This document shows positions 14,249 through 42,950 of a stretch of DNA of 42,950 nt, piece after piece (position 1 is the stretch's first letter; each line of letters begins with the position of its first letter). A program made the translations under genes and the position numbers. This DNA comes from Candidatus Hydrothermarchaeum profundi. GTDB lineage: Archaea; Hydrothermarchaeota; Hydrothermarchaeia; Hydrothermarchaeales; Hydrothermarchaeaceae. The notes beneath the pieces were generated by a model. That model worked only from the letters and a program-made list of their open reading frames with translations, did no database searches and had not been told where the DNA came from. The stretch covers positions 504,045 through 546,994 of the forward strand of contig MTMF02000009.1 of NCBI GenBank assembly GCA_002011125.2, written 5' to 3'.

Positions 14249-14284
14249 AATGACAACCTAAATGACAACCTAAACGACAACCAT
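14249..14284 (+). repeat. Three tandem 12-nt repeats next to the fic stop codon
   Basis: AATGACAACCTA occurs twice in a row (14249-14260, 14261-14272) and is followed by the variant AACGACAACCAT. The array abuts the 3' end of the minus-strand fic gene. No function is evident. Confidence 0.75.
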
Positions 14285-18300: not shown

Positions 18301-18430
18301 CAGTGAAATAATACTTGGCTTTATGCTCCCTGTCGATCCAGAAAGTCTCCTCATCAATGTATACAAAACCCTTATCATGGAAAAAATGCTCCTCAAAGTC
18401 TTCCCTCGAAGAGATGTCTTCAAACTTCAT
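15314..18430 (-). CDS. N6-adenine DNA methyltransferase (Eco57I/type IIG-like)
   Basis: This 1038-residue protein has the order motif X region (GAYYTPSEITEYI, about 303-315), AdoMet-binding motif I LDNACGSGAF (371-380), and catalytic motif IV NPPY (592-595), which is the gamma-class N6-adenine methylase pattern. Residues about 740-1000 resemble a TaqI-C-type target-recognition region (TLLNSKLFNWIHKKK, ARIPQGSLRYPISFLKDLPI). No PD-(D/E)xK nuclease motif was found at the N-terminus, so cleavage is probably supplied by the upstream PLD-helicase, whose stop overlaps this start by 4 nt. The DNA encoding the recognition region (about 15.54-16.56 kb) is visibly more AT-rich than the rest. It probably marks self DNA in a restriction/defence system. 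Confidence 0.88.
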   Translation of the reverse strand: MKFEDISSREDFEEHFFHDKGFVYIDEETFWIDREHKAKYYFTDDLNYSHAYQLFREKKGVHMTPYYIFIDNDFDVYYIFSEYHTPFKFVYDKNRRERDYTKLSRLQLLNALKYEDKAYNDSFQALFDTKPLVKKFYDEYKVIKTRLSDSLKGLDDDERWFYSQVLLDRIIFIYFLQSREIIEKDYLTNLYRNRDKKRNFFNDYLKPLFFNAFNYDHPFHEKIEVNGVNLGNIPYLNGGLFRKKEVEIDNEISIKDGIWGEIFRLFDSYEWVVEERHEDAVVLTPSILGHIFEQSVTGRKCKGAYYTPSEITEYISMNTIYPYLRDRLNERFGTDYKNIWSELLDKQEFSKNEIDRVSYLYFNILKELRVLDNACGSGAFLMAAHKILLALYRKCYRILKDELVFSAENKAIDSYGSPDYYFKRIIATQNIYGVDLEDGAVEIAKLRLWLSMISDLSIESVEPLPNIDYNIMHGNSLIGFVEAPLVEQTTLDSADTTMQIIKAKGALLDQYKATTDPKIAENLKRDIERINEKFRPELNEKFHRMLTVDYKIKISKEELEALHPFHWGFEFYEVFDPDRPKGERGFDILIGNPPYVKASKIPAEKKIFNKIYSTAYGPYDIYILFFEKSINVLNEKGLMGYITSNKYFVADYGKKLRDFLLKNCTIREIIDFSKAKSIFQDALVSTAVMILRKEKNERDYQVKIIIIESEKELGTLNKNKGKSIKKSELIDSASGHFQVFSDKSVNEILSSSSSNSVPLGQVGDVRTGVMGFEYWNMESYIHEGKTDKKSCKIVTNSYIKPYGFLWGKNVKIYKKNFNFPHISIESAPLSDDTKDLFLQKNKIIIRGVAKKLTAAIDTEGIGLLVAVHSFSTNDIEKNKYILTLLNSKLFNWIHKKKFYSARIPQGSLRYPISFLKDLPIIIPEKITGFLKLSSYLIFLNNNAHQVSKIIDFFSGKILDSLIYSLYFKEKFQEDGVPTNLAELVEPYLIDIEELGSDEEKMTAIEKVYEEITADGEIMETIKKIKSHPWVKVIEGENA

Positions 18431-21400: not shown

Positions 21401-21669
21401 TTTTTATTTGCAGACTTTACACGTTCGAGATGGTTATATCCTTCTGCCAACTGTTCTATTGTTTCTCTATCCGATGTGTTACCTATCAAAAGCCGGAGCT
21501 TTTTGAATCCTTCCCTATTCAATTCCCTCTGAATGCCACTAAATCCGCTGAGAAAGAAGTAGCCAATTGCGAATTTTGCTTCTACACTCCCATCAAGGGC
21601 TTTCTTTACATTATAAAGGAGTTGCCTTTCGATGACATCTTTATTGTTATCTATTATATTGGATGCCAT
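18427..21669 (-). CDS. PLD-nuclease/SNF2-type helicase fusion
   Basis: This 1080-residue protein has an N-terminal phospholipase-D-like nuclease domain (HSK at about 147-149, then GSSNLS at 171-176) fused to a SNF2/RapA-like superfamily 2 motor. Motor motifs are SDVVGLGKT (about 289-297), LIDESHNF (364-371), LLTATPLNN (393-401), and motif VI LIQRIGRVDRIG in the second lobe. The C-terminal 250 residues are charged and helical without a recognised domain. The start ATG 21669 has a GGAGGAG Shine-Dalgarno sequence. It is the first large gene of the methylase-fic cassette. Helicase plus PLD plus methylase recalls DISARM (DrmD, DrmC, DrmMI), but DrmA/DrmB are absent, so I call it only a restriction-like module. 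Confidence 0.85.
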   Translation of the reverse strand: MASNIIDNNKDVIERQLLYNVKKALDGSVEAKFAIGYFFLSGFSGIQRELNREGFKKLRLLIGNTSDRETIEQLAEGYNHLERVKSANKKIEFGKKKQKLDDTKQRVKSTLEGMDQTDENEGWMYNLAELISKEKIRVRVYTRGRLHSKAYIFDYPPDLRAQYGPGMAIIGSSNLSMAGMYHNTELNIKTRDERDHEDLTKWFMDLWKNSENFDESLMELLKVSWPIAEVTPYELYLKTLYHLVEDRLEEEKDIKLFWKDTLPTLTNFQEVAVKTAISIIKQYNGAFISDVVGLGKTYIGSGVLKYFADVYGYKPLIICPKSLVDMWEESNEKYELGAKVLSMSMLSDRNKNLLKRYENCDIVLIDESHNFRYPNTKRYELLQPFTSRRKTVLLTATPLNNTPLDIYYQIKLFHAKDRTKIPVAPANLKEFFKTVENGEAALSSILSHLLVRRTRKQIIKYYGKKDNNGKYYVRIGKKRNYFPERDLKTLSYSIDEVYEGIYDRVYESLSRLTLARYGLYDYVLPAKQNKHPYLELKSAGQNLKGLVRSGLFKRFESSSFAFKRSIENFIKINTIFLEALKKGYVPAGEEVQKVIYDSQIEEDEDLAEILQNIEGLSEKYDIKDFDVPALEADISSDLRILEEIFGLVKDIPGLWTDTKLRELMTKLKSPELKGKKVLVFTEFVDTANYIYEELKGHFKRNMEVITGNTKDRHKVVGRFAPRSNQYTFENGEEEIDILISTDVLSEGLNLQDCSDVINYDLHWNPVRLIQRIGRVDRIGTEAEVIRVYNFLPEKKLEKNLKLKEKLDIRIKEIHTAIGEDTYILHTREMLNTEAMYAIYDENPEELDRFEEEDEKVKVSEAEDIIRKLQKEEPELLERIKNISMGVRSARQSPDGNKYRFVFLKKGNYKRLYLLDPKGNIVFEDEAKILKIIKCNKDEPVLKIPPGYNKTVSDMKKKFSQMVKEAEDAGEKVKLTTGQRYIKKALNEFRKEVEVSEFEDAKEKEDLISKIVEFERVFTTEIPSKPLNKQLTLIKNNEIKGEELMKKLEILYYDHNLARMVEEIEEKEDPLTYIVCSEALE

Positions 21670-27058: not shown

Positions 27059-27262
27059 ATGTGCCTTATACCGCCTGAGCATATGAGGCGCTATGAGCAG
27101 GGGGAGGTACCTTTAGGTAAGGAGTTTGAATGTAGAAACTGTGGAGAATCCGGGATAGTGAATGTATGGAAGAACAAGCGGCCAGTATGCCCGAAATGTG
27201 GCTCCTCTGATGTAATCCTAACTCCTGGCGGGACTCATATGCCTGATGGTTGCCGCGACTAA
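27059..27262 (+). CDS. Small zinc-ribbon protein (copy A)
   Basis: This 67-residue protein has a CxxC pair at residues 25/28 (CRNCGESG) and a second at 44/47 (CPKCGSSD), a rubredoxin/zinc-ribbon arrangement. The N-terminus MCLIPPEHMRRYEQGEVPLG and C-terminus LTPGGTHMPDG have no known motif. A second, frameshifted copy lies at 32000. A TATA-like AAGCTTTAATA precedes it. It ends overlapping the convergent ZU5-like gene by 4 nt. It could bind nucleic acid or act as a subunit; the function is unknown. Confidence 0.75.
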   Translation: MCLIPPEHMRRYEQGEVPLGKEFECRNCGESGIVNVWKNKRPVCPKCGSSDVILTPGGTHMPDGCRD

Positions 27263-29589
27263 CAGGGTGGTTTTTTAACATGTTTTATTGTTAGGACACC
27301 TGTCATGGAGTACTCGATCAGGGTCCTCGGTGCCCCGGGTATGAATCTTTTCTCTCCCCTGTCAAGGGCTTCTTCTTCTTTCCAGAGGGATAAGCCGTGG
27401 TATGGGAAGTCTGGGTCGTTTATCTTCGCCCATGGCCAGCCGAGGGCGGGTTCGCCGTCCTTGACTAATATTATATCGCTCTTAGAAGCCACGGCTAGCT
27501 TAAGCTCTTTTTGCGTTATCCTTGTGGCCCAGAAGACCTTGTCTCTTAGAGCTTCTGACAGCGCTGTTACCTTGCTGGTTATCTCGTAGGCTGTTTCAGC
27601 AGGCTCTAGGTCTATGAATCCAACGTAGGCGTCATCTATGATGAAGTGAAGGCTGGGGGCTCCATCGTTTACTACGTACTGGGCCTTTAAGCCTTCTCCA
27701 AGGCTCAGGGCGGCCTTCGGTTCGAACTCGCTGTACGCCAGAAGGGTCTTAACTTTTGCTGGGGCTATGCTCATTCTGTAGTTCTCGGAGCTCGTTACTA
27801 GGTAGTCTTTTCCCTCGTAGGCGAAGACCCCGCCTGCCTCTGGGCCTGCGAGGACCTTGCCGAGCCTTATCCTCACCGGGGGCCCGCTGTCATGGAGGTA
27901 GAGGGAGTCATAGAGGGAGTCGCCTTCGATGTCTTTTATCGGTGAGAGGGTGTAGACCTCCCCTGATTCTCCTTTGATGTCCACGCTCAGCAGGGTCTCG
28001 TAGTCTCCTACTTCCTCTGGGAGCTTGTGCACGGTTACAGGGAGGGATGTTGTAACCCCCCCGATGGCGGCGGAGATGATGCCTGAGCCGGGGGCTTCAG
28101 GGGAGAAGGCGAGGGTCTCCCCGGTCTGGGAAATTCTGAACTCCGTTGAACTCCAGGAGACCTCTACAGGGTTGCCCGCGGGGCCGTAGGCAGTGAAGGT
28201 GGCTTGCTCGCCCTCATAGAAGCACGTGCGGTTACCCGGGGTGCCTATTGTCACCCCGCCGGTAATAGTTGCATTTCCTTTTTCAACACAATGAGCTATA
28301 CCATTGCCGCTTATCCCTCCGAACACGTAGTTATCCGGAGCCTCTTCTGGCGACATTTTAAAGGAAAAAGTAACGCTATGATAACCCGACCCTTCGCGAA
28401 TACAGGTAAACTTGAATTTTTTAGTCCAGCGTTCACCTGGCCTAAGAAGGGGATATACTGTGCCGTCCTTTTCTAACTCCAAACTACCTTTAGCAGTGGG
28501 TTCTATTTCCACATTTTTTAATTCAGTTGGTAGTTGTCCTTCTTCTAACTCCCCCTTAGGAAGGTTCTGGATAATGAATGTTGCTTCAAAAGAATTGCCC
28601 ACAGAAAGACTAATTTCATGGGGAATTATCATAATTTTAACCGTGCCAGCTTGTATAGTTTGTTGTCCTCCAACTCCGGTAATTGTAGCTTCTTTAGTTA
28701 TAATTGGTATTAGATATTTTTCATCAACGCATTCAGCAGTGCCTCTTATCCATATAGATACGTCAATAAGATTACTCGGCTCCTCCACCTGTGGAACCCA
28801 ATAGCCAACACTAGCGCCATATCTACCTTTTCCGCCGTGGCAAATATAATAAAAGGTTGTTTGGTAATGCTCCCCAGATTTAAGGATTCCAATCTCTTTT
28901 GAACTGCTTATCGTACCCACAGGAATATCCCAGACTTCGGGCCATATCGCTGCATATTTTATATCTGTAGGTTTTCCTTCCTTTAACTCCTCGGCTGGTA
29001 AGTTCCAGATTTCAAAATCCGCCTTAAAAATACTTTCAGGAGGAAGGCTTATTCTTTCCGGACGCATTTTAAATTTAATAGTCCCCATCCGTTTAACCAC
29101 CCAACTGAAATGGCTGGTGTTTCCTTCTATATACGCCTCTCCAGGTCCCACCACCACCCTCTGATCCTGGAGGAGCTCGACTTCTCCCCTGCCATTAACG
29201 GTGAGGAGGATGGGTGGCGCTACTTCTGTCTTGTTCGCGGTTATGTTGTAGAGGGAGCTGTCTAGGGCTATCTTGATGGTCACTGGCTTCTTGAAGGCTA
29301 TGCCCTCTGGTCCGAGGCGGTATGGCTGCCCGATGACTGGCATCTCCCTCAGAGCCTTTGGTAGTTCATCTACGGAGGTAGCCTCACAGGTGACGGTGGT
29401 TTCCTTCTTTAAGGCGCCCTCTGGCACATCTACCAACACTCTGCCGTTGTCGCAGCTGAGGTTACCGCCCCCGGGGCCTATGATCGCTGAGGCTACTGCG
29501 ATTTCGCCTGGGCCGTGGAGGAGAAATAACAGGGCAACACTCGTGGCTAAGGCAGCCAATAATAAGAGATAAGTCTTACTCCTACCCAT
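27259..29589 (-). CDS. Secreted/anchored multidomain protein with ZU5-like domain
   Basis: This 776-residue protein has a basic start and hydrophobic segment at about residues 6-35, predicting export with anchoring or cleavage. Residues about 37-165 look like a ZU5-type domain (IGPGGGNLSCDNGRVLVDVP and PEGALKKETTVTCEA). Two homologous beta-rich units follow at about 169-310 and 316-450, sharing IxxPExISLxxxxxFxAxFxIxNLPxxELxEG and paired cysteines. A third region may be Ig-like (about 455-530), and the rest is unassigned. The protease gene lies 62 nt upstream on the same strand. A surface structural, adhesive or self-processing role is inference. Confidence 0.75.
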   Translation of the reverse strand: MGRSKTYLLLLAALATSVALLFLLHGPGEIAVASAIIGPGGGNLSCDNGRVLVDVPEGALKKETTVTCEATSVDELPKALREMPVIGQPYRLGPEGIAFKKPVTIKIALDSSLYNITANKTEVAPPILLTVNGRGEVELLQDQRVVVGPGEAYIEGNTSHFSWVVKRMGTIKFKMRPERISLPPESIFKADFEIWNLPAEELKEGKPTDIKYAAIWPEVWDIPVGTISSSKEIGILKSGEHYQTTFYYICHGGKGRYGASVGYWVPQVEEPSNLIDVSIWIRGTAECVDEKYLIPIITKEATITGVGGQQTIQAGTVKIMIIPHEISLSVGNSFEATFIIQNLPKGELEEGQLPTELKNVEIEPTAKGSLELEKDGTVYPLLRPGERWTKKFKFTCIREGSGYHSVTFSFKMSPEEAPDNYVFGGISGNGIAHCVEKGNATITGGVTIGTPGNRTCFYEGEQATFTAYGPAGNPVEVSWSSTEFRISQTGETLAFSPEAPGSGIISAAIGGVTTSLPVTVHKLPEEVGDYETLLSVDIKGESGEVYTLSPIKDIEGDSLYDSLYLHDSGPPVRIRLGKVLAGPEAGGVFAYEGKDYLVTSSENYRMSIAPAKVKTLLAYSEFEPKAALSLGEGLKAQYVVNDGAPSLHFIIDDAYVGFIDLEPAETAYEITSKVTALSEALRDKVFWATRITQKELKLAVASKSDIILVKDGEPALGWPWAKINDPDFPYHGLSLWKEEEALDRGEKRFIPGAPRTLIEYSMTGVLTIKHVKKPPC

Positions 29590-32263: not shown

Positions 32264-32548
32264 ATGTTGGAAGGAGAAATTATTTTAAAAATGAAGTTGC
32301 TTTCCAAGGAAGAAAGGGAATATTTCGAGGACCTCGAGAAGAATTTCGACAGCCATGTGGAGAAGTACAGGGAAGAAAAGGAAAGGCAGCTGAAAGAAGG
32401 AAAGAGGAAAGAACTCGAGGAGGAACTCAGAGGCATAGAGGGTTACCTGGAAGGTATTTGGAGAGGAGAAATTTCTGACATCCAGGTAAATATCAGGTTC
32501 CATAGCGCTAAGTTACAGGTACTTAAAGAGGTTCTTGAAATTTGTTGA
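32264..32548 (+). CDS. Small charged, probably coiled-coil protein
   Basis: About 94 residues, dominated by heptad-like charged helix (YFEDLEKNFDSHVEKYREEK and RKELEEELRGIEGYLEGIW). The start is uncertain: ATG 32264, ATG 32291 (MKLLSKEERE), or further upstream at 32216. The last possibility overlaps the frameshifted zinc-ribbon gene. Its TGA overlaps the TTG start of the LRR gene, so the two are translationally linked. No family is recognised. Confidence 0.6.
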   Translation: MLEGEIILKMKLLSKEEREYFEDLEKNFDSHVEKYREEKERQLKEGKRKELEEELRGIEGYLEGIWRGEISDIQVNIRFHSAKLQVLKEVLEIC

Positions 32549-33387
32549 TAGAAAAAATGAAAGAACTCGACGAGAGTTTTATTTCGGGTGTAATTATAGA
32601 GGAACTCTGGAAAGACGAGGACAAGGTTGAACAACAGGGTAGTGGTTGGTTTTCCAGAGAGGGAGAGTGGAGTTGTAACCTTAGAGAGGTAAAAGTAGAC
32701 GATGTCAAGAAGCTCCGGGAGGGAGGCTACGAAGTATCTGCAACCTGCAACATGGAAATCCAAACAGCACAAGTATATTCCTTTGACCATCCCCCAAAAG
32801 AAGCTCTTGGACGGGTAACGGTAAAAGTAAACGAGGACCTCAAGGTGGAGGAGTTCGATTATAAATGGATGAGCGAAGCTTTGGGTGGGCGATGTGGCTA
32901 TAGCTTGGAAGAGATAACTGAGTGCAGGGACCTGCAGATGCTAGAGTTGGAATATCAGAAGCTCACCGAGCTACCTCCCGAGATAGGAGAGCTAAGGGAC
33001 CTTAGGTATCTGATTATAAGAGGTAATTCCCTAACTCAGCTTCCACCAGAGATAGGGAAGCTTAAAAACTTGGAGTATCTTGATTTATGCTTAAACCGCC
33101 TTACTGCTCTCCCAGCAGAAATAGGAGAGCTTCGAAGCTTGTGGAAGCTTGATTTAAGGAGCAACCAACTCACTCGTCTTCCAGTTGAGATCAGGAACTT
33201 AACAAATCTGAGGTATCTCTACCTAGGAAATAATAAATTCTCTAAGGATGAAAAATCAAGGATCAGGGAGTTCCTGCCGAGGTGCCGGGTTTCCTTCTGG
33301 TTCTGGGGACCGCATTACGGCGTGTTTTTAGGGAATTTGGATGAGGAGTTAGAGGAGTTAGAGGAATCATTCAGGAGGCACTCATAA
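32542..33387 (+). CDS. Leucine-rich repeat protein with unnamed N-terminal domain
   Basis: A 281-residue protein (from TTG 32542/32545, or ATG 32557). Residues about 1-115 form an unnamed domain that includes KKLREGGYEVSATCNMEIQ and LKVEEFDYKWM. Residues about 130-240 hold five 23-residue LRRs of the ELPPEIGEL type (LRDLRYLIIRGNSLTQLPPE is one). The C-terminus is aromatic then acidic (FWFWGPHYGVF, DEELEELEESF). No signal peptide. LRR arrays of this kind bind proteins. Its stop and the next gene's ATG overlap or abut, and that gene carries the same N-terminal domain without LRRs. Confidence 0.85.
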   Translation: MLIEKMKELDESFISGVIIEELWKDEDKVEQQGSGWFSREGEWSCNLREVKVDDVKKLREGGYEVSATCNMEIQTAQVYSFDHPPKEALGRVTVKVNEDLKVEEFDYKWMSEALGGRCGYSLEEITECRDLQMLELEYQKLTELPPEIGELRDLRYLIIRGNSLTQLPPEIGKLKNLEYLDLCLNRLTALPAEIGELRSLWKLDLRSNQLTRLPVEIRNLTNLRYLYLGNNKFSKDEKSRIREFLPRCRVSFWFWGPHYGVFLGNLDEELEELEESFRRHS

Positions 33388-33791
33388 TGAAAATGCTTAC
33401 AAAGGAAGTTATAGAGAAACTGGTACGCCGGGAGCTTGAAAAAGGTGAAAAGGAATTTGGGGAGTTATTCACAGCAGCTCAAGAAGGGAGGATAACTTGG
33501 GAGGAATTCAGGGATAAGAGCAGGACGCTACAAGGCTACGGCGTCTGGTGGAGCTCGGAGGCGCACTATTCCCTTGGAAAGGTGGAGGTAAACGAGGTCA
33601 ACGAGCTGGGAGATGGTCTCTATGAAATCTCCGCGACATGTGACATGTTTTACGAGAGCGGGCATATAGTCTGGGGTGAAGGAGGAGAACTCGAAGAGTA
33701 TGCCATAAGGCCTAAAAAAGCATCTGTAAAGATAAAGCTCAGGGTCAATGACGCTCTTAAGGTGGAGGAGTTCAACTTCCGGTGGATTTGA
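33387..33791 (+). CDS. Companion protein with the same unnamed domain, no LRR
   Basis: This 134-residue protein aligns with the N-terminal domain of the preceding LRR protein. Shared features are a helical start, LGKVEVNEVNELGDGLYEIS followed by ATCDMF, and LKVEEFNFRWI at the end, compared with GGYEVSATCNME and LKVEEFDYKWM upstream. It therefore behaves as a free-standing version of that domain. It is immediately followed (1 nt) by the propeller gene. Function unknown. Confidence 0.75.
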   Translation: MKMLTKEVIEKLVRRELEKGEKEFGELFTAAQEGRITWEEFRDKSRTLQGYGVWWSSEAHYSLGKVEVNEVNELGDGLYEISATCDMFYESGHIVWGEGGELEEYAIRPKKASVKIKLRVNDALKVEEFNFRWI

Positions 33792-33792
33792 A

Positions 33793-35205
33793 ATGAAATT
33801 AAGGTTGAAGGAATTGGAGAAAGCCGAGAACGTGACCATTGAGCTAGGCGATGACCTGGTCTGGGTGGGAGCAGAGAACGGCTTTTATAAAATAGACAGG
33901 GTAAGAAAGCAGGTATTGGAGAGGTTCCCTATAAGGGAGAGGGTTTTCCCGGAGAAGGAATCGGTAAGGGTGGCCATCGACGGCGACTGCGGGATACTTT
34001 GGCTCGCTGCCGAGGGGTGCGTGGTGAGGTTTGACGGGAGAGAACTCAGAAGGTTCACTCCTGAAGACGGGCTCCCAGAGGAGTCCCCTGACTGCATTGG
34101 AGTAGATGAGAGGGGAAGAGCATGGGTTGGCTACTCTGGGGTAATATGTTGGTTCGACGGAGCGAGATGGCACAGGGTGGAGCTGGAGTTCAAGCATTCC
34201 ACGTTCACCCCGGGTGCAGATGTAATAGGTTTCGATGGCATGGGCGGGGTATACGCGGCTGACACCCATGTGCTGTCCGTGGTTAAAGGAGAAACCTATG
34301 AGTGGGTGGTGCTTAATGAGGATTTCAACACGATTGATAGTGGCGACACTCCGGAATGCATTCACATAGCTGGTGATGGTTCGGTCTGGGTAGGCACATG
34401 GGGAAATGGAATGATAGTGGTAAAGGAAGGAGCCGTTAAAAGACTGGCTTCTGGGGGCTATGAGCGCGTTGAAAGTCCTCGGGGCATGAGAGAGGATTCA
34501 AAGGGCAATCTGTGGCTGTGCTGCAGTAGGAGCCTTTTCAGGATAGATAAATTTAAAATAGAGGAGTACAGCCTTAGGGGCAAGATACCCGGGGTTGTGG
34601 TAGACTTCAGGGTGGACAAGGATGGCAATTTCTGGCTTCTTACCAAGCCCGGCAACGAAGTGCTGGTGTTGCCGCAGAGGGAGATTCTCGCCCCATTGGA
34701 GGTGAGAGAAGCGAAGGGGAAATTTAGCGGGCTTCCCGTGGTGAGGGTAAGCGGTTTCGAGTATGTTGATGCTAGCTTGAATGCGGATTTCTGGAGCACG
34801 AAGGAGCACAAGAGGATGGCGAGGATATGCATGAAAAAGTCTTTCGGGCTTTTTTTGCGCAAACTTTGGCTGTTTTTGGGCATACGCCTAAGAAAGGTAA
34901 ACGAGGAAAAGCTGAGAGAAGCAGACGAGAAAGCCTTGGCTAAGCTCCGAGGGGAGGTAATGGAGGAGATGCTCAGGCTGGGGGAGAGGCTTAAGGAAAA
35001 AGGGCTGGAGAAGTGTCTGCGGGCTTTCATGGGTGCCCATGGCCTGGCAATCCCTGCCCTTGCGGAGAGGATAAAGTACAGAGGCAGGGATGCCTGGGTC
35101 TTCGCGGCTAACTGGGGGTTCGGTTCTATGGATTATAGTCACATAATCTTGGAGGTAATAGATGAAGAAACAGGTGAGACGCTGTTCTCTGAGAGATGTA
35201 GATGA
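33793..35205 (+). CDS. Beta-propeller (regulator-propeller-like) protein with unknown C-terminal domain
   Basis: 471 residues from ATG 33793; an upstream in-frame start at 33748 overlaps the previous gene and is less likely. The N-terminal ~310 residues contain repeated propeller blades: LVWVGAENGFYKID, ILWLAAEGCVVRFDG, RAWVGYSGVICWFDG, SVWVGTWGNGMIVVKEG, NLWLCCSRSLFRID and NFWLLTKPG. These resemble the Reg_prop blades of hybrid two-component sensors. There is no membrane segment or kinase. The C-terminal ~150 residues are basic then helical and end DYSHIILEVIDEETGETLFS. The final 35 nt recur in the relic at 23163. Confidence 0.8.
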   Translation: MKLRLKELEKAENVTIELGDDLVWVGAENGFYKIDRVRKQVLERFPIRERVFPEKESVRVAIDGDCGILWLAAEGCVVRFDGRELRRFTPEDGLPEESPDCIGVDERGRAWVGYSGVICWFDGARWHRVELEFKHSTFTPGADVIGFDGMGGVYAADTHVLSVVKGETYEWVVLNEDFNTIDSGDTPECIHIAGDGSVWVGTWGNGMIVVKEGAVKRLASGGYERVESPRGMREDSKGNLWLCCSRSLFRIDKFKIEEYSLRGKIPGVVVDFRVDKDGNFWLLTKPGNEVLVLPQREILAPLEVREAKGKFSGLPVVRVSGFEYVDASLNADFWSTKEHKRMARICMKKSFGLFLRKLWLFLGIRLRKVNEEKLREADEKALAKLRGEVMEEMLRLGERLKEKGLEKCLRAFMGAHGLAIPALAERIKYRGRDAWVFAANWGFGSMDYSHIILEVIDEETGETLFSERCR

Positions 35206-35245
35206 TGAGTAAGCAGGCGAGGATTAAAACCAGAAAGTGAAGGCG

Positions 35246-36781
35246 ATGACCCATAGGCCCCTTGAACCTGATGTGGAGAAGATGAAGGCAAAAGGAGATG
35301 TTGCAGGGCTGATAGAAGCCCTCAGCTATGGGGACCCCGAGATTCGGATAAAGGTCGTGGGGACTCTAGAGGAGATGGATGTCAAAAAGACAATAAAGCC
35401 CCTCCTACATGCCTTAAAGGACCCCAAGGTCGAGTACTGGGCGGAGTTGGTTCTGAGGAGAATCGTTAACCCCCAGGTGATTGAGCCTTTGATTCAGGCA
35501 TTGAAGGACGAGAATCAGCGGGTTCGCTGGCAAGCCAGCTTGCTCCTTGCGATAATAGGGGAACCCGCAGTAGGACCCTTAATAGAGGTCTTGGAGGATG
35601 AAAATCCAGATGCCAAGGAGTATGCCGCCTGGACTCTAGGGGAGCTCGAGGATAGAAGGGCGGTGAAACCTCTTATTAGGGCTTTAAAGGACGGGCATGG
35701 AGGGGTTCGGCGGAACGTTGCTATGGCTCTCGGGAAGATAGCAGATGAAAGAGCAGTGGAGGCGCTGATAGATACCCTGATGGACGAGGAGATGGAGGTT
35801 CGAGAGGAGGCAGCTCTGGCCCTGGGCAAAATAGGGGACGAAAGAGCCCTAAAACCCTTGCTTCTGCTCTTGGAGGAGGACGATGAGGAACTGCGAAAGG
35901 TTGTGGGAGAAGCCCTTGGAGGCTTAGGGAAGCCTGCGGTCGGGCCTTTAATCCAAGCCCTGGAAGATAAAGACGACAGTATTCGATACATAGCGGCGGT
36001 GGCCCTGGGATTGATAAAAGATGCTGGGGCGGTGAAGCCTCTTATCCGGGCCCTCGATGACCCCGTGCCCCGAGTCAGGTCAAGGGCAGCCCGGGCCTTG
36101 GGAAACATCGGTGACAAAAGAGCAAGAGAGCCTCTCCTCAAGGCCCTGAAGGACGGAGATGTGGAAGTAAGGCGGGACGCAGCAGATTCCCTTAGCAGGA
36201 TAGGGAGCACGGAGGTGGTGGAGGCCCTGGTTCAGGCACTGAAGGATGAGGATAAGTGGGTTCGGACGCATGCTGTCTGGGGGCTTGGCAGGATAAGGCG
36301 CGGGGGAGTAGTGGAGCCCCTTATTGGTGCTCTGAAAGATAGAGACGGGTGGGTCCGGTGGAGCGCCGTTCAAGCTCTGGGAGAATTAGGCGATAAAAGA
36401 GCCGTAGAGCCCCTGATACGCGCTTTGGAGGAAGACGAGGACGTTAGCGTTCGGAGCTTTGCTGCCATTGCTCTCGGGAAGATAGGGATGAAAGAAGCGA
36501 CAGGGGCTTTAATCAAGGCTCTAAAAGATAAAGACTGTGAGGTCAGATATTGGGCTGTGTGGGCTCTTGGAGAGATCAGAGGCAGGAAAGCCATAGAACC
36601 GCTAATCCAGGCGCTAAGGGATGATGACTGGGGTGTCAGGTCCGAGGCAGCCCGGGTTCTTGGAGAGATTGGAAGCAAGAAGGCTGTGGAGGCCCTGCGC
36701 AGAGCCCTGGAGGATGAGGATGAAGGGGTACGGCGCGCTGTGGAGGAGGGTCTTAGATTTTCGTCTCTGGAACTGAGGTGA
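35246..36781 (+). CDS. HEAT-repeat (PBS-lyase type) protein, 16 repeats
   Basis: 511 residues (514 if GTG 35237 is used) made almost entirely of about sixteen 31-residue HEAT-like units of the form AVEPLIRALKDxDxxVRxxAAxALGxIGD. This is the PBS lyase HEAT_2 class. It is an extended alpha-solenoid scaffold for protein binding; no catalytic domain is fused. It starts 40 nt after the propeller gene in the same direction. GC content is clearly higher than in the neighbouring small genes. Confidence 0.92.
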   Translation: MTHRPLEPDVEKMKAKGDVAGLIEALSYGDPEIRIKVVGTLEEMDVKKTIKPLLHALKDPKVEYWAELVLRRIVNPQVIEPLIQALKDENQRVRWQASLLLAIIGEPAVGPLIEVLEDENPDAKEYAAWTLGELEDRRAVKPLIRALKDGHGGVRRNVAMALGKIADERAVEALIDTLMDEEMEVREEAALALGKIGDERALKPLLLLLEEDDEELRKVVGEALGGLGKPAVGPLIQALEDKDDSIRYIAAVALGLIKDAGAVKPLIRALDDPVPRVRSRAARALGNIGDKRAREPLLKALKDGDVEVRRDAADSLSRIGSTEVVEALVQALKDEDKWVRTHAVWGLGRIRRGGVVEPLIGALKDRDGWVRWSAVQALGELGDKRAVEPLIRALEEDEDVSVRSFAAIALGKIGMKEATGALIKALKDKDCEVRYWAVWALGEIRGRKAIEPLIQALRDDDWGVRSEAARVLGEIGSKKAVEALRRALEDEDEGVRRAVEEGLRFSSLELR

Positions 36782-36834
36782 GATAGCATGCTGTAGGTTC
36801 TGCGTGGCAGGTACATATAGCGAGGGGTAATGAA

Positions 36835-37290
36835 ATGGGAAGGTTAATTTATGCTGGATTAAACGGAGAAGCCGTTTGGAAGTATGTCCCCATAGTTCAG
36901 GACAGCGAGCAATACAGGATTGCAGAGGAGCTTGGGATAGGGAGAATGGAATACCCCCTGAGCAGGGTCCCTTACTGCAGGCACAAGAAACATGAGGAAG
37001 AGGAGTGCCCGGAGGAGTGCGAGTGGGACGACTGCCCCTTCGCCGGAGATATACTGTTTCTTCGGAGGGATGACCTGCCAAGGCTCAAGAAAGCCCTGGA
37101 GCCGCACCTCGGGGAAATCGAGAAGTACGAGAAGGAGCGTGGAGACAGAGATTCCATCCGGGTTAGAAGGCTCATAAATCTTACAGAGAAATACCCAGAC
37201 ATCCACTTCTGGAGGATGGTGAAGGCAATTGTCGAGTATATGGAGAGAACGGACTTGGACGCTTATGAGTTCTGGGGAGAATACGAATGA
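36835..37290 (+). CDS. Unknown protein with cysteine/histidine cluster, 151 aa
   Basis: Not recognised. Residues about 45-70 contain YCRHKKHEEEECPEECEWDD followed by CPF, four cysteines plus histidines that could bind zinc. The rest is helical and charged (RLKKALEPHLGEIEKYEKER). It is co-directional with the HEAT gene upstream and an unknown gene 20 nt downstream, so it probably belongs to the same transcript. Confidence 0.65.
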   Translation: MGRLIYAGLNGEAVWKYVPIVQDSEQYRIAEELGIGRMEYPLSRVPYCRHKKHEEEECPEECEWDDCPFAGDILFLRRDDLPRLKKALEPHLGEIEKYEKERGDRDSIRVRRLINLTEKYPDIHFWRMVKAIVEYMERTDLDAYEFWGEYE

Positions 37291-37310
37291 CCCGTCCATG
37301 GTGAGGTAGC

Positions 37311-37760
37311 ATGGGGACGTACCACGCAATAGCTCCGGTTGACTGGTCCAAACTCTGGAGGGAGGTCATGCCCTCGTGGTACCGGTGCTTGAAGGGGAAA
37401 GACCTGAAAACCTTTGCAGACACTTTTGTCAAGGACCGGAGGGAGTACGATGATATCAACGATACCTTCTTCACGGAGGTGTTGGAGGAGTGGCATAGGG
37501 TATTGAAGACCCTGCCCGACGGGTGGCATGCTGACTTTGACTGGCTGTCCCGGTCAGGGATATTCCGTGCCTTCCGCTGCGAGGGGTACGCGCACCAGGA
37601 ATACATAGAGGAACTGGATGCAACGGACCTTCTAATCAATGCGGTGGTTCAGCACGCCGGGGTTGTGCTCTCTGGGAGAGACAGGTTTTCCTTCTCGCCC
37701 TATGACAGGTTCTATAGCAAGTTGCACGACTACCCAGAGATACAGGTGGGCTGGCACTAA
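37311..37760 (+). CDS. Unknown protein, 149 aa
   Basis: Not recognised. It starts MGTYHAIAPVDWSKLWREVM after GGTGAGGTAGC, and is rich in aromatic residues and aspartate (LPDGWHADFDWLSRSGIFRA). It ends 4 nt before the frameshifted gene at 37765. No membrane segment or known motif. Confidence 0.62.
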   Translation: MGTYHAIAPVDWSKLWREVMPSWYRCLKGKDLKTFADTFVKDRREYDDINDTFFTEVLEEWHRVLKTLPDGWHADFDWLSRSGIFRAFRCEGYAHQEYIEELDATDLLINAVVQHAGVVLSGRDRFSFSPYDRFYSKLHDYPEIQVGWH

Positions 37761-37764
37761 GAAC

Positions 37765-38123
37765 ATGTACTTCTTCCTCGACGTGCTGTTTCATCGAAGG
37801 GAGGTTAAAAAGGGATTCGTCTACGAGGACCGGGGCGTCGTGGATAAGGAAATCATTGACCTTTTGAGGTACCTGCTTTTTGGGTCCGCACCCTACCCGG
37901 GTCGATTCTCTGCCCCGCCGGTTGCGACTGGCCCTGGGGAAACATATGGATAATCCAGGGGTATCTCCTGCCCGGGGAGGCGAAAAAGCTGAGCTCCTAC
38001 TGGGCCGAGATAACCAAGCACATGAATCCGGAGGAGGACGAGCTTTCCACAATATTCTGCGACTGCGTACAGCGTTCAGCCAGGGCGAACGCAGGCTTAA
38101 TCACCCTTTATGATAGCTTGTAG
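37765..38123 (+). pseudogene. Frameshifted unknown gene
   Basis: From ATG 37765 the frame reads MYFFLDVLFHRREVKKGFVY and on to DLLRYLLFGSAPYPG. A one-base shift around 37890-37905 then leads into GSILCPAGCDWPWGNIWIIQ, GYLLPGEAKKLSSYWAEITK and a stop at 38123. Both halves have protein-like composition, so this was one gene of about 120 codons. It may be decayed or carry a sequencing error. Family unknown. Confidence 0.6.
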
Positions 38124-38322
38124 GAAAAACGGAAAACTTTTATCCTTCTTCAAAACGTCGAAGAATGTGGATGAGAGGTTCTCGACCGATTCGGTGGCAA
38201 TCCTCGTTTAGACGTAGAGACTCCCAGTTCTTCTGTTCATTACCTACAAAATCTGCGCACTTGATTGATAGAATCATAGTCCCCTAGCAACTTATAAGAA
38301 CTCTCGAGGAGTATAAAAGCCC

Positions 38323-38736
38323 ATGGGAAAAAACCTCCTTGTCAGCCTGAACCTGGGTTCTGCAATCGCCGGGGAAGCCGAGCCGGTTTACTTTGAAGAC
38401 CAGGAGCTAGAGGAGCTCAGGAGAGCTACTGGCAAAAAGCCTGGCTTCCGCTTTCTCCGGGAGGTGCTGTTCTCTCCCGCCTCCGAGGTGCCCCCTGAGA
38501 GCCTGCCGAGGCTTATCAGGGACTTAGCCGGGCTGTTGCTTCCCTACTACGGGCTCTCCCGGAGGAGCAGGGGCATCGTGATAGAGCTTATAACCAGGGC
38601 GGCGGACGCCATCGAAGAAAAAGATGCCCTCTGCCTCTGGGACAGCGACGCCGTGGGCAAGATAGACTATGAGAAGGCCGTAAAAAAGGTTGAAGATTTC
38701 TATCCAGAGAAGGAGAAGGGCAGGGACATAAAATAG
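38323..38736 (+). CDS. Unknown protein, 137 aa
   Basis: Not recognised. It has a mainly helical acidic sequence with an LIRDLAGLLLPYYGLSRRSR segment and an EKDALCLWDSDAVG turn. TATA-like CTTATAAGA (about 38290) lies 33 nt before ATG 38323, suggesting a near-leaderless transcript. It is followed after 10 nt by the VapB-like remnant. The 199 nt before it hold no gene. Confidence 0.6.
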   Translation: MGKNLLVSLNLGSAIAGEAEPVYFEDQELEELRRATGKKPGFRFLREVLFSPASEVPPESLPRLIRDLAGLLLPYYGLSRRSRGIVIELITRAADAIEEKDALCLWDSDAVGKIDYEKAVKKVEDFYPEKEKGRDIK

Positions 38737-38746
38737 GGTGATAAGT

Positions 38747-38848
38747 TTGAATATAACCATTAGAGATGTGGACGAAAAGGTCTTCAGGGAATTTAAGGCT
38801 GAGGCGATGAGGGATGGAACACGCCTTAGGGGAGCGCTAACAGATTGA
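38747..38848 (+). pseudogene. Truncated VapB-like antitoxin
   Basis: TTG 38747 opens MNITIRDVDEKVFREFKAEA and stops after 33 codons. The start matches ribbon-helix-helix VapB antitoxins of archaea, but the C-terminal helix that neutralises the toxin is missing. AGGGTGAT precedes the start. It lies next to the VapC remnant. Confidence 0.6.
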
Positions 38849-38870
38849 TGAGATACTTTATGGTGGTTAG

Positions 38871-39233
38871 ATGGCAGTGTTCATCGACTCCAGCGCGTTC
38901 ATAGCGTACTACAACAGAGGGACCTCCGCCACAGAGCCTCAGGGAATTAATAAAGAATTGCGTTAAGGGAGCCTTTGGGGAGTTCTTCACCTCTGACTAC
39001 GTGGTTCGAGAGGCAGTCACCGTAACGCTCCTTAAAACCGGCTTGAAGAGAGCCGTTGAACTCGGGGATTACCTATTAAACTCGGAGGTCACATTACTCG
39101 AAGTTGACGGAGACATCTTCAAAGAGGCTTGAGAGGAGTTCAAGACACCGAGGCTAAGCTTCACGGGATAGACAAGATTCTGACATTTGACAAGGGATTC
39201 AAAGGAATAAAAGGGATAAAAGCCATACTCTAG
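38871..39233 (+). pseudogene. Degraded VapC-like PIN-domain toxin
   Basis: MAVFIDSSAFIAYYNRG is a PIN-domain start with its first catalytic aspartate. After a frameshift and stop near 38960 it continues GAFGEFFTSDYVVREAVTVT and VELGDYLLNSEVTLLEVDGD. An in-frame TGA and a further shift plus deletion remove the central acidic region. The last piece, GIDKILTFDKGFKGIKGIKA, ends at 39233. Several lesions make it inactive. Confidence 0.8.
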
Positions 39234-39242
39234 GGAGTAATT

Positions 39243-42200
39243 TTAATCCAAAAGTTGCTCCAGGAGGGTCCTATACGCCTCAGAGGGCTCAACTCCTGAG
39301 AGCTCTATCAATTCCTTCAAATCCTCTATCCATCCCTTCCGTACGTAAGTCCTGTACATCTCTCTGAGGAATTCTTCTGGGAACTCGGGTTCGATGCCGG
39401 TAACCCATATCCAGTCCGCGACTCTACTTGCCCATCCCCTCTTCACCAGAGCTCTGTATCCCTTCTGGATGGTTTTCTCCGAGGGTTTAACCCCCGTTGC
39501 CTCTGCTAGGGCTTCTAGTTGGTCAAACTCTAGGTTCCGCATAATGGCGATATATCTTTTTTGAACGAGCTCCCCGGGAAGCTCTGGTTCGACTCCTGTC
39601 AGCTCCACTAACTCTTTAAAGATATCCGGGTTTCCCCTCTCTAGGAACATCCTGTAAACTTTTTGAAGGGTCTCCTCATGGGGGCTGGTTAGGGTAACCT
39701 CTACCAGAAATTTCACGCTGGTGTCCCAGCCCTTCCGTAGGTAGGTTTTATATATCTCCTGGAGGAATTCTTCTGGGAACTCGGGTTTAACCCCTGTGGC
39801 TATAACCAGTTCCTTGAAAAACGGCAGCCACCCCTTCTGCACTAGAGCCATGTAGCCTTCCTGCACGATCTCCTCAAAGGGCTCTACCCCCGTGAATTCT
39901 CTAAACCTTTTAAACTCATCTGGCCATCCCTCAGCCACGACGTTTATGTACGCCTCTTGGATAAACTCCTCGGGCAACTCCGGCTCAACCCCAGTAACCT
40001 CCTTTAACTCCTCTAGGAGATACATCGGCCTCCCCTCTTCGATGAAAGTTCTGTACACTCTCTGAACAGTTTCTCCTGGTAACTCTGGCTTAACTCCCGT
40101 AATCTCTACCAGATACACCAGGCTACTGGACCATCCCCTCTCTACGATGGTTTCATAAGCCTCCTGGAGGAATTCTTCTGGGAACTCGGGTTTAACCCCG
40201 GTAGCTATTACCAGCTCTTTCAGCTGCTTTAGGCTTCCATCCCTTACGAGGTCCCTGTACACTTCTTGTAGGAGATCCTCCGGTGGCTTGACCCCTGTGG
40301 TGTCTATCAGCTCCTTGAAATGTTCGAACCACTCTGAGGGAGGCAGCCCTTCTTGTACGCTCCATTCTACGAGGCTCCGATATTTTTTCCTGACAGCGTC
40401 CTCCGATGGCTTAACCCCTGTACGCCTCATTAATGCACCCAGATGGGACAGCCAGCCCTTCTCTAGGAAGGTTTTGCAGGCCTCCTGGACGAAGTCCTCC
40501 GATGGCTTAACCCCGGTAAGCTCCATCAGCTCCCAGATATCGTTCAACCACACTTCCTGCAGAAAGGTTTTATAGGTCTCCTGGACGAACTCCTCGGGCA
40601 GCTCTGGCTCTACCCCTGTGAGCTGCATCAGCGCCTCTACACCCGAGATGTTTCTTTCCAGCACGAAGTCTCTGTATTTCTCCTGGATCTTTCCTATGAG
40701 CATTTCTTTGTCTATGCCACGGGACTCGGCATAGGCAAAAAATCCCGAAGCCAAGGTAAAAAGTTTCAAAAGCCACTCCAGGAGGCTTCTGCCAGGCTTG
40801 ATTCCTGTGAACTCCATTAATTCCTTCAAGCTCTTTGGCTTCCCTTTTTGTATGAGGTTTGTATAGGCTTTCTGAATAAAATCCTCCGAGAGTCTGGGCT
40901 CAATCCCCGTGGCTTTCACCAGTTCTTTTAGATAACTTATCTGTCCATTCACCACCAAAGCCTTGTATCCCTCTTGAACCACCTTCTCCGACGGTTTAAT
41001 CCCTGTGGCCTTTATCAGTTCCTTGAATTCGCGGATTTCATTAAGCCAGCAAATCCTCGTCATTTTCGCTATAAAAAGCGAATACTGTTCTTGGACAAAG
41101 CCCTCGGGTAACCTTGGTTTAACACCCGTGGATTTTGCCGCATCTTTAAGGCGCTTTAGGTTTCTGCCGATTGAATGGCGCTCCGTGCACGCTAATCTTA
41201 CGCATTCCTTGTAGCACTCTTGGATGGCTTCATCCTCCAACTCGATTCCCAGAGCTCTGGCCGCGATTATAAAATCGTACACTCTGTGTCTTTGCTTGCA
41301 GCTCCGGTAGATTTCCTGAATATTTTCCTCCATCAGCTTGGTCCCTGTAACTTCTGCTATAATCACGAAATCGCACAGCCTGTTTCCCTTCTTGTATTTC
41401 TGGTAGACTTCTTGCAGGAAGGCGTTAGAGAACTTGGGCTTGATCTCTGTAACTTTTACGAATTCCCTTAACCCGGGCAAATCACATCCGCCCTTCAGAG
41501 CGAGATATTCATATGCCTCCTGAACCACTCGCTCAGCCGGGTCTATCCTCACAAACTCCTTAAACTCTCTAAAGCGCTCCACCCCTTGGTACTTCATAAT
41601 GTACTTGTACCTTCTCTGAACATCTCCCCAGCGTATCTTGAATCCTGTTACCTCCACCAGTTCTTTTATCACCCAAGGAGGAGCATGCCCTTCTCCCACC
41701 AGAACTTGATAAGCCCTACGAACAGCTTCCTCGGATAACCTGGGCTTGACCCCTGTAAGTTCGATGAGGTATTTTAAGCTGCCCGACCATGTATCCCTTA
41801 TAATAGCTTTGTATGCTCTCTGGAGGAATTCCTCTGGGAACTCGGGTTTTACCCCTGTGGCTATTATGAGTTCTTTCAGTGGTTTCAAGCTTCCATCCCT
41901 TACGAGGTCCCTGTACACTTCTTGTAGGAGATCCTCCGGTGGCTTGACCCCTGTGGTGTCTATCAGCTCCTTGAAATGTTCGAACCACTCTGAGGGAGGC
42001 AGCCCTTCTTGTATGCTCCATTCTACGAGGCTCCGATATTTTTTCCTGACAGCATCCTCTGATGGCTTAACCCCTGTACGCCTTATCAGTGCTTTTAGGT
42101 GAAGGAAGCACTCCTGCTTCAAGAAGGTTTTGCAGGCCTTCTGGACGAACTCCTCCGATGGCTTAACCCCGGTAAGCTCCATCAGCTCCCAGATATCATC

Positions 42201-42413
42201 TACCCGCTCTTTCCGGAGATAGCTTCTGTACGCCTCCTGGACGAACTCCTCGGGCAGCTCTGGCTCTACCCCTGTGAGTTGCATCAGCGCCTCTACACCC
42301 GAGATGTTTCTTTCCAGCACGAAGTCTCTGTATTTCTCCTGGATCTTTCCTATGAGCATTTCTTTGTCTATGCCCTTGGACTCGGCGTAGGCTAGCAAAT
42401 CCAAAGGTAACAT
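39243..42413 (-). CDS. Giant alpha-solenoid of ~28 PPR/TPR-like 32-34-residue repeats
   Basis: This 1056-residue protein consists almost wholly of units with consensus TGVKPE.PEEFVQEAY......G W..LKELxE, each 32 or 34 residues with a few 36-41-residue variants (for example the 40-residue unit containing EGLPPSEWFEHFKELID). Each unit predicts two helices; the G(V/I)(K/E)P turn and YxxxxxxxG spacing recall pentatricopeptide repeats, but the period is shorter than the PPR norm of 35. There is no signal peptide, membrane segment or catalytic domain. The N-terminal ~200 residues are repeated 552 residues later without indels. It is divergent from a membrane LRR gene at 42485. A protein- or RNA-binding scaffold is inference. 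Confidence 0.85.
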   Translation of the reverse strand: MLPLDLLAYAESKGIDKEMLIGKIQEKYRDFVLERNISGVEALMQLTGVEPELPEEFVQEAYRSYLRKERVDDIWELMELTGVKPSEEFVQKACKTFLKQECFLHLKALIRRTGVKPSEDAVRKKYRSLVEWSIQEGLPPSEWFEHFKELIDTTGVKPPEDLLQEVYRDLVRDGSLKPLKELIIATGVKPEFPEEFLQRAYKAIIRDTWSGSLKYLIELTGVKPRLSEEAVRRAYQVLVGEGHAPPWVIKELVEVTGFKIRWGDVQRRYKYIMKYQGVERFREFKEFVRIDPAERVVQEAYEYLALKGGCDLPGLREFVKVTEIKPKFSNAFLQEVYQKYKKGNRLCDFVIIAEVTGTKLMEENIQEIYRSCKQRHRVYDFIIAARALGIELEDEAIQECYKECVRLACTERHSIGRNLKRLKDAAKSTGVKPRLPEGFVQEQYSLFIAKMTRICWLNEIREFKELIKATGIKPSEKVVQEGYKALVVNGQISYLKELVKATGIEPRLSEDFIQKAYTNLIQKGKPKSLKELMEFTGIKPGRSLLEWLLKLFTLASGFFAYAESRGIDKEMLIGKIQEKYRDFVLERNISGVEALMQLTGVEPELPEEFVQETYKTFLQEVWLNDIWELMELTGVKPSEDFVQEACKTFLEKGWLSHLGALMRRTGVKPSEDAVRKKYRSLVEWSVQEGLPPSEWFEHFKELIDTTGVKPPEDLLQEVYRDLVRDGSLKQLKELVIATGVKPEFPEEFLQEAYETIVERGWSSSLVYLVEITGVKPELPGETVQRVYRTFIEEGRPMYLLEELKEVTGVEPELPEEFIQEAYINVVAEGWPDEFKRFREFTGVEPFEEIVQEGYMALVQKGWLPFFKELVIATGVKPEFPEEFLQEIYKTYLRKGWDTSVKFLVEVTLTSPHEETLQKVYRMFLERGNPDIFKELVELTGVEPELPGELVQKRYIAIMRNLEFDQLEALAEATGVKPSEKTIQKGYRALVKRGWASRVADWIWVTGIEPEFPEEFLREMYRTYVRKGWIEDLKELIELSGVEPSEAYRTLLEQLLD
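40190..40735 (-). repeat. Internal direct duplication, copy 2 (mate at 41846-42391)
   Basis: About 545 nt inside the solenoid gene is repeated at a constant offset of 1656 nt (552 codons), with long identical stretches, for example 40236-40360 against 41892-42016. At protein level both copies read GIDKEMLIGKIQEKYRDFVL and SGVEALMQLTGVEP, and continue through KELIDTTGVKPPEDLLQEVY. Confidence 0.9.
41846..42391 (-). repeat. Internal direct duplication, copy 1 (mate at 40190-40735)
   Basis: This is the N-terminal copy of the duplicated block in the solenoid gene. The fixed 1656-nt offset and absence of indels indicate a recent duplication or continuing gene conversion. Confidence 0.9.
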
Positions 42414-42484
42414 GCTAATAGATTTTTAACGTGTAGAGTTAAAAGTTTTATTGTATAAATGAAAAGAGTTTAAAACAAGGAGAA

Positions 42485-42950
42485 ATGAGGGCTGAGGAAA
42501 ATACTGAAGATTTACTTAGGGCTTTGAAATCTGACGCAGATACTGTCCAAGCCCTAGAGGGAAAGAGGCTTGGAGTGTCTGAGCCTCACGCTTCTTCTGC
42601 CAGGCATCGCAAGATTATGTCATTCTTCATCCTGGGAGTATTGCCCATCTCCCTAGCGGGATTGATGGTGTTTTTCCTTGCCACAAGGGCACCGATGCTC
42701 CTCCTGCTCCTTATACTGCTCTACGGTCTTGAACTCCTATTATTTATCGTGTTCTCCTTTGACCTAAGTTCAGTCGTTAAAGGCAGCCTGGTGTTCAAGG
42801 CGTCTATGGTTGATATGAGGTCTAGAGGGCTAACCGAGATATCAAGGGATGTCTGGAAGTATGGGCATTTGAAGATTCTCAGGTTGTCTCATAACCGCAT
42901 CGCCCATCTGCCGCCAGAGATAGGTGAACTCGAGGACTTAGAGGAGCTTG
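42485..42950 (+). CDS. Membrane-anchored leucine-rich repeat protein (3'-truncated by window)
   Basis: ATG 42485 follows AAGGAG, and the frame is open to the window end (about 155 codons). After a 38-residue polar start there are two adjacent membrane segments, at about residues 42-63 (IMSFFILGVLPISLAGLMVF) and about 66-88 (MLLLLLILLYGLELLLFIVF). A short linker and LRR units begin at about residue 119, LKILRLSHNRIAHLPPEIGE being the first. The LRR type matches the soluble LRR protein at 32542. A TATA-like TTGTATAAATG lies about 30 nt upstream. The full length and any further domains lie outside the window. Confidence 0.85.
   Translation, partial: MRAEENTEDLLRALKSDADTVQALEGKRLGVSEPHASSARHRKIMSFFILGVLPISLAGLMVFFLATRAPMLLLLLILLYGLELLLFIVFSFDLSSVVKGSLVFKASMVDMRSRGLTEISRDVWKYGHLKILRLSHNRIAHLPPEIGELEDLEEL

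What the first reader, a model, noticed from the sequence alone, without database searches (positions are those of the whole stretch)
39243..42413. Archaeal giant solenoid with PPR-like repeats of unusual 32/34-residue period
About 28 tandem two-helix units with a TG(V/I)(K/E)P turn and conserved Tyr and Leu positions make up the whole protein. The motif resembles pentatricopeptide repeats, which are rare in archaea, yet the period alternates between 32 and 34 rather than 35. It may be a new helical-repeat family.
Basis: partly seen in the sequence, partly recalled or inferred. Interest (0 to 1): 0.7.

Follow-up and report, generated by a model that had tools for sequence, protein, structure and literature searches.

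The report
New archaeal two-helix repeat solenoid
A long archaeal protein made of about 30 copies of a two-helix unit belongs to a previously undescribed spring-shaped repeat family that is scattered in tiny Woesearchaeota-type archaea; its nearest look-alikes are the plant PPR proteins, but it is not one of them and most likely works as a binding scaffold.

Summary
ORF 39243-42413 (-), 1056 aa, is almost entirely tandem units of 32 or 34 residues (about 30), far above chance. The family consensus is ELSEELVQEAYKTLLKEGRLDSLKELKELTGIKP, with a Q-x-x-Y pair in helix A and a TG-x-x-P turn. The 32/34 difference is a 2-residue change in the linker; 41-residue units carry loop insertions. It is two complete solenoids in one gene (aa 1-552 and 553-1056), with their first ~224 residues still 86% identical in DNA. 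AlphaFold2 gives a confident all-helical solenoid (pLDDT 87; 90 for a 179-aa piece). No Pfam, NCBIfam, PHROG, PADLOC or PDB sequence family contains it. It is absent from the other 22 genomes of its phylum, but relatives with the same end caps occur sporadically (about 6%) in a phylum that includes Woesearchaeota, and once on a bacterial contig. PPR proteins are the nearest solved structures, ahead of TPR, but TM is below 0.5, the PPR profile misses, the base-code position is not conserved and the protein is acidic. I call it a new alpha-solenoid family, PPR-like in topology but not PPR, most likely a protein-binding scaffold, probably gained by lateral transfer.

The parts
39243..42413 (-). 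Whole ORF, 1056 aa double alpha-solenoid of 32/34-residue two-helix repeats
42261..42413 (-). N-cap and first unit of solenoid 1 (aa 1-51): ...AYAESKGIDKEMLIGKIQEKYRDFV..., conserved in Woesearchaeota relatives
   Evidence: alignment with L022/L020, the same proteins as L049/L050
40794..42260 (-). Repeats of solenoid 1 (aa 52-540)
40758..40793 (-). Inner C-cap-like junction (aa 541-552, GRSLLEWLLKLF), matching the C-cap position of relatives
   Evidence: alignment; inferred
40605..40757 (-). Second N-cap and first unit (aa 553-603), 86% identical to the first copy
39285..40604 (-). Repeats of solenoid 2 (aa 604-1043)
39246..39284 (-). C-terminal cap (aa 1044-1056, SEAYRTLLEQLLD), matching SxEVYxxL.. 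of relatives
41742..42389 (-). Duplicated block, copy 1 (aa 9-224)
   Evidence: 86% DNA identity to copy 2, dN 0.10, dS 0.33-0.42
40086..40733 (-). Duplicated block, copy 2 (aa 561-776)

Best explanation
The ORF encodes a member of an undescribed alpha-solenoid repeat family, named here the QxxY/TGxxP repeat. Each unit is a 14-residue helix A, a 2-3 residue turn, an 11-residue helix B, and a 5- or 7-residue linker that contains TG(V/I)xP; the linker choice makes the unit 32 or 34 residues long (shown on the model). The repeats stack into a superhelix closed by family-specific N- and C-caps. The structural residues Q8, Y11, L26 and T30-G31-P34 are fixed, while the end of helix A, the A-B turn and the start of helix B vary between units and between the duplicated halves, which suggests a customisable binding edge. 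The most likely function (inferred) is a cytoplasmic scaffold that binds one or more proteins along this edge. The gene was probably gained laterally from a Woesearchaeota-type lineage and then doubled and fused (inferred from distribution and anatomy).
For: Repeats are real. AlphaFold2: aa 553-1056, pLDDT 87.2, 30 helices in A/B pairs with the stated lengths; 179-aa piece, pLDDT 90.5, pTM 0.80. Full-length relatives with the same caps in Woesearchaeota MAGs; 21 of 371 genomes of that phylum at E<=1e-5, with paralogues in some, such as a tandem pair of 328-aa solenoids in G506. Only the window's genome has a clear copy among 23 of its own phylum. It sits in a 1.9-Mb contig near the RNA polymerase/EF-2 operon, so it is unlikely to be contamination. 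Of 33 replacements mapped on five duplicated units, 26 fall in columns 9-22 (14 of 34 columns, p=1e-5), with dN/dS about 0.23 to 0.31, so the gene is under constraint. No known catalytic domain was found, and no signal peptide or membrane segment is apparent by eye. It is acidic, as are most relatives. Neighbouring genes are other interaction repeats: LRR, HEAT, TPR, beta-propeller.
Against: No partner, expression or phenotype is known. In two genomes of one family (G407, G970) a fused relative sits in the RNA polymerase/S12/S7/EF-2 operon, and PPR is the nearest structure, so a role with RNA or the ribosome cannot be excluded. Coordinates of the models were not available, so surface charge and the exposure of the variable columns were judged by sequence only. 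The variable columns may simply be the least constrained loops. No tree was built to test lateral transfer.
Confidence: 0.6

Rival explanations
1. It is a divergent prokaryotic PPR-type protein that binds RNA along helix A, one repeat per base.
For: PPR10, designed PPRs, mitoribosomal PPRs and LRPPRC dominate the Foldseek PDB list (E 5e-7, probability 1.0), and PRORP1 and THA8 lead for the short piece. hhalign of 107 family units aligns in register with designed PPR (Y-x-T..KxG.L....L..GIKP; E 3e-4; 0 of 60 and 1 of 60 shuffles reach it, against 2-29 of 60 for ANK, SEL1, TPR and HEAT). PPR_2 and PPR_1 are among only three Pfam hits for the G970 repeats, though at E 0.2-0.4. Fused relatives sit in a translation operon.
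Against: The Pfam PPR profile gives no hit on this ORF even at E 10. TM is 0.15-0.25 whole and at most 0.47 for the piece. The column that aligns with the PPR code residue is K/R in 17 of 26 units and N/S/T in 2 of 26. Protein pI is 5.3 and Woesearchaeota relatives 4.5-5.0. An earlier hhalign test with 11 rows was beaten by a shuffle.
Confidence: 0.17
2. It is a known TPR, SEL1, ankyrin or HEAT repeat that diverged beyond profile detection.
For: Similar unit length and helix-pair topology. Foldseek against viral models returns giant-virus ankyrin-type proteins (E 1e-5; TM up to 0.40).
Against: No Pfam TPR, SEL1, ANK or HEAT hit among the listed matches for the protein, its consensus or ten relatives. 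hhalign scores against their consensus units are near shuffle level. The model has no beta-hairpin. PDB ranking puts PPR first, not these.
Confidence: 0.13
3. It is a structural or elastic spacer whose repeats expanded by neutral slippage, with no specific ligand.
For: Repeat number and sequence turn over quickly between relatives, even where the fused N-terminal domain is well conserved.
Against: dN/dS of about 0.23-0.31 between the duplicated blocks, strictly kept turn and Q/Y positions, conserved caps.
Confidence: 0.1

Closest known systems
Pentatricopeptide repeat (PPR) proteins (PF01535, PF13041; PPR10, designed PPRs, PRORP1)
   Same: Two-helix alpha-solenoid of similar period; G(V/I)KP turn, conserved Tyr early in helix A, KxG-like A-B turn; best Foldseek neighbours.
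   Different: Period 32/34, not 35; helix B of 11 residues; no Pfam PPR hit; TM below 0.5; no conserved N/S/T at the base-code position; acidic; prokaryotic.
Ankyrin-type repeats of giant viruses
   Same: Helix-pair solenoids of about 33 residues; matches at E 1e-5 in viral predicted structures.
   Different: No ankyrin TPLHxAA or GADVN motifs, no beta-hairpin; TM at most 0.40.
TPR / SEL1
   Same: Two-helix units of 34 and about 36 residues.
   Different: No TPR or SEL1 profile match; turn motif and Q/Y signature differ.
HEAT_PBS proteins of the same genome (window 35237-36781; L061:9727-11256)
   Same: Long archaeal alpha-solenoids in the same neighbourhood.
   Different: Different unit and unrelated sequence; easily recognised by Pfam.

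Membership tests
PPR | Match to the PPR profile at curated cut-off | tested here: not met
   No PF01535 hit on this ORF at E<=10; hmmscan finds none. Sub-threshold PPR_2 0.22 and PPR_1 0.4 for G970 repeats only.
PPR | 35-residue period | tested here: not met
   32/34 with some 41; relatives mostly 32-37.
PPR | Right-handed two-helix superhelix that superposes on solved PPRs | tested here: inconclusive
   Foldseek probability 1.0 and E 5e-7, but TM 0.15-0.25 whole and at most 0.47 for a 179-aa piece.
PPR | Base-code residues (position 5 N/S/T, position 35 D/N/S) | tested here: not met
   Aligned column 12 is N/S/T in 2 of 26 window units and 8 of 81 others; alignment. Position 35 was not scored because the linker differs in length.
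PPR | Binds single-stranded RNA | not testable with these tools
   Needs biochemistry; acidic pI argues against.
TPR / SEL1 | Profile match | tested here: not met
Ankyrin | Profile match and beta-hairpin between helix pairs | tested here: not met
   No ANK hit; no strands in either model.
QxxY/TGxxP solenoid family defined here | Q8-x-x-Y11, T30-G31-x-x-P34, N-cap AExxGxxxxxLxxxVQxKY, C-cap after the last TGxEPS | tested here: met
   Shared by the window and two Woesearchaeota proteins; 107 units from 24 sequence entries.

The most novel reading that the evidence does not exclude
The family is a prokaryotic cousin of PPR within the same solenoid clan, used in small-genome archaea with the gene-expression machinery (fused forms sit in the RNA polymerase/S12/S7/EF-2 operon), so that PPR-type solenoids would have a prokaryotic relative rather than being essentially eukaryotic.
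Probability: 0.13. Interest if true: 0.8.

Novelty: new variant of a known kind. Interest (0 to 1): 0.45.

Why it matters
It adds a repeat family that the searched libraries lack to the alpha-solenoids, centred on archaea with very small genomes, where most proteins have no assigned function. Its simple consensus and tolerant length make it a candidate for designed binding scaffolds. If a deeper comparison ties it to PPR, it bears on where the PPR fold came from.

Tried and rejected
Pfam hits over cut-off for the protein and its consensus (UPF0154, Cdh1_DBD_1, GntR, NADPH_Ox and others) were rejected: they are summed, scattered short matches of unrelated models to near-identical repeats, in different registers. 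A first hhalign test that seemed to favour PPR was discarded because a shuffled unit scored higher; the broader 107-unit version is the one cited. Low-scoring genome hits, such as RNA polymerase (L038) and a secreted-looking protein (L033), were treated as chance. Plasmid, phage and viral-contig searches found no relatives. The 'Acidobacteria' relative (L051) may be misbinned: coverage 1.0, and none of 296 other genomes of that phylum has a match. Positive selection on the duplicated halves was rejected (dN/dS 0.23-0.31). No papers on such a family were found, but the library is open-access only.

Full report
OBSERVATION. The ORF at 39243-42413 (-) is open from ATG to stop and codes for 1056 aa. 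BLOSUM62 self-comparison gives sharp peaks at shifts of 66, 34 and 32 residues, well above 200 shuffles. Cutting after the TGxxP turn gives units of 34, 32, 41, 32, 34, 36 ..., and a unit profile recognises 28 of them clearly and two weakly. The 34-residue type has the linker KP-E-L/F-P-E-E-F and the 32-residue type KP-S-E-E-F. The 41-residue units have an extended loop between the two helices.

DOUBLE SOLENOID. An offset of 552 residues brings aa 1-224 onto aa 553-776, 68-98% identical unit by unit and 86% in DNA, with dN 0.10 and dS 0.33-0.42. Beyond aa 225 the halves no longer match in register. The inner segment aa 541-575 reads as a C-cap followed by a second N-cap when aligned with single-solenoid relatives. 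The gene is therefore two complete solenoids in one frame. One relative genome (G506) has two adjacent 328-aa solenoid genes that overlap by four bases, a plausible picture of the state before fusion (inference).

FOLD. AlphaFold2 on aa 553-1056 with four relatives gives mean pLDDT 87.2 and pTM 0.58: 30 helices, typically 14 (A) and 11 (B) residues, joined by 2-3 residue turns and by 5- or 7-residue linkers. A 179-aa piece with 11 rows gives pLDDT 90.5 and pTM 0.80 with the same pattern. The local fold is confident; the pitch of the whole superhelix is not.

RELATIVES. The window's genome has one copy and none of the other 22 genomes of its phylum has a clear one (one E 0.008 match). A scan of 394 archaeal relatives found one further genome, and its phylum was then sampled: 21 of 371 genomes match at E<=1e-5. 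The genome-contig scan named two of these sources as Woesearchaeota MAGs; L049 and L050 encode the same proteins as loci L022 (G478) and L020 (G501) of that phylum. These proteins (472 and 362 aa) share N-cap, repeats and C-cap with the window protein. A third relative lies on a bacterial contig (L051, 242 aa) of uncertain binning. Since the window copy lies in a 1.9-Mb contig, the simplest account is lateral gain by this lineage, followed by duplication; this is inference from distribution, as no tree was built.

FAMILY LIBRARIES. Nothing in Pfam, NCBIfam, PHROGs or PADLOC describes it. The few Pfam scores over cut-off are repeated short matches of unrelated models. Sequence search of the PDB finds nothing convincing. 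The PPR profile does not touch the ORF even at E 10.

WHAT IT RESEMBLES. Foldseek against the PDB puts PPR proteins on top for the half-protein (PPR10, E 5e-7, probability 1.0) and for the short piece (PRORP1, E 1.5e-3), but TM-scores stay below 0.5. Against viral predicted structures the best matches are giant-virus ankyrin-type proteins at E 1e-5. A profile of 107 units from 24 sequence entries aligns in register with designed PPR repeats better than with TPR, ANK, SEL1 or HEAT units. The PPR consensus used was verified against PDB entries; the other consensus units were typed from general knowledge. The alignment needs three indels per unit: four residues fewer in helix A, three fewer in helix B and about six more in the linker. 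So it works like a PPR/TPR-type solenoid, but membership in PPR fails on profile, period and code residue.

MECHANISM. Shown: the fixed positions are structural (Q8, Y11, L26, T30, G31, P34), and changes between the duplicated halves concentrate in columns 9-22, the end of helix A, the turn and the start of helix B (26 of 33; p=1e-5). Shown: purifying selection, an acidic protein and mostly acidic relatives. Inferred: this edge is the ligand surface, and the ligand is more likely protein than RNA. The near-invariant Gln (96 of 107 units) could form a ladder that binds extended chains or could stabilise stacking; these data cannot tell which. The neighbourhood is rich in other interaction repeats (LRR, HEAT, TPR, beta-propeller), consistent with a scaffold role but no proof.

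A COUNTER-CLUE. In G407 and G970, two genera of one family, a relative with a conserved ~225-aa N-terminal domain lies next to RNA polymerase A'' and the ribosomal proteins S12 and S7, followed in G407 by EF-2 (S7 was identified by Pfam in G407 only). The two proteins are 62% identical overall, and the repeat arrays differ more than the N-terminal domain. A third genome has the fusion at another place (G520). This keeps a translation-linked role open for that branch.

VERDICT. A real, undescribed alpha-solenoid repeat family, closest in shape to PPR but not PPR, best explained as a binding scaffold. The family and fold claims are strong; the function claim is moderate.

Noticed in passing
window 32542-42950 and L061:8530-17402: A cluster of interaction-repeat genes surrounds the ORF: LRR, beta-propeller, two HEAT_PBS proteins, TPR, and a membrane-LRR gene that starts 71 bp away divergently and runs into an assembly gap; a SUKH/SMI1 protein, a serpin and an AlkD-like protein are also present.
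   Followed up: partly
L064:5957-7300 and L098:7627-8817: An undescribed ~225-aa N-terminal domain fused to the same repeats, inserted in the RNA polymerase/S12/S7/EF-2 cluster of two archaeal genera; a third fusion lies elsewhere (L100:3-1511).
   Followed up: partly
window 14284-21669 (-): Fic protein, Eco57I-type methyltransferase and SNF2/PLD helicase genes in a row, looking like a restriction-type defence cassette.
   Followed up: no
window 38752-39240 (+): Remnant that reads like a broken VapB/PIN toxin-antitoxin pair (interrupted frames) just downstream of the repeat ORF; not searched.
   Followed up: no
window 27259-29589 (-): 776-aa protein with a ZU5 domain, a domain better known from eukaryotic scaffold proteins.
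   Followed up: no
L102:6293-11852: A 1059-aa relative followed directly by a 793-aa protein with no Pfam hit in genome G996.
   Followed up: no
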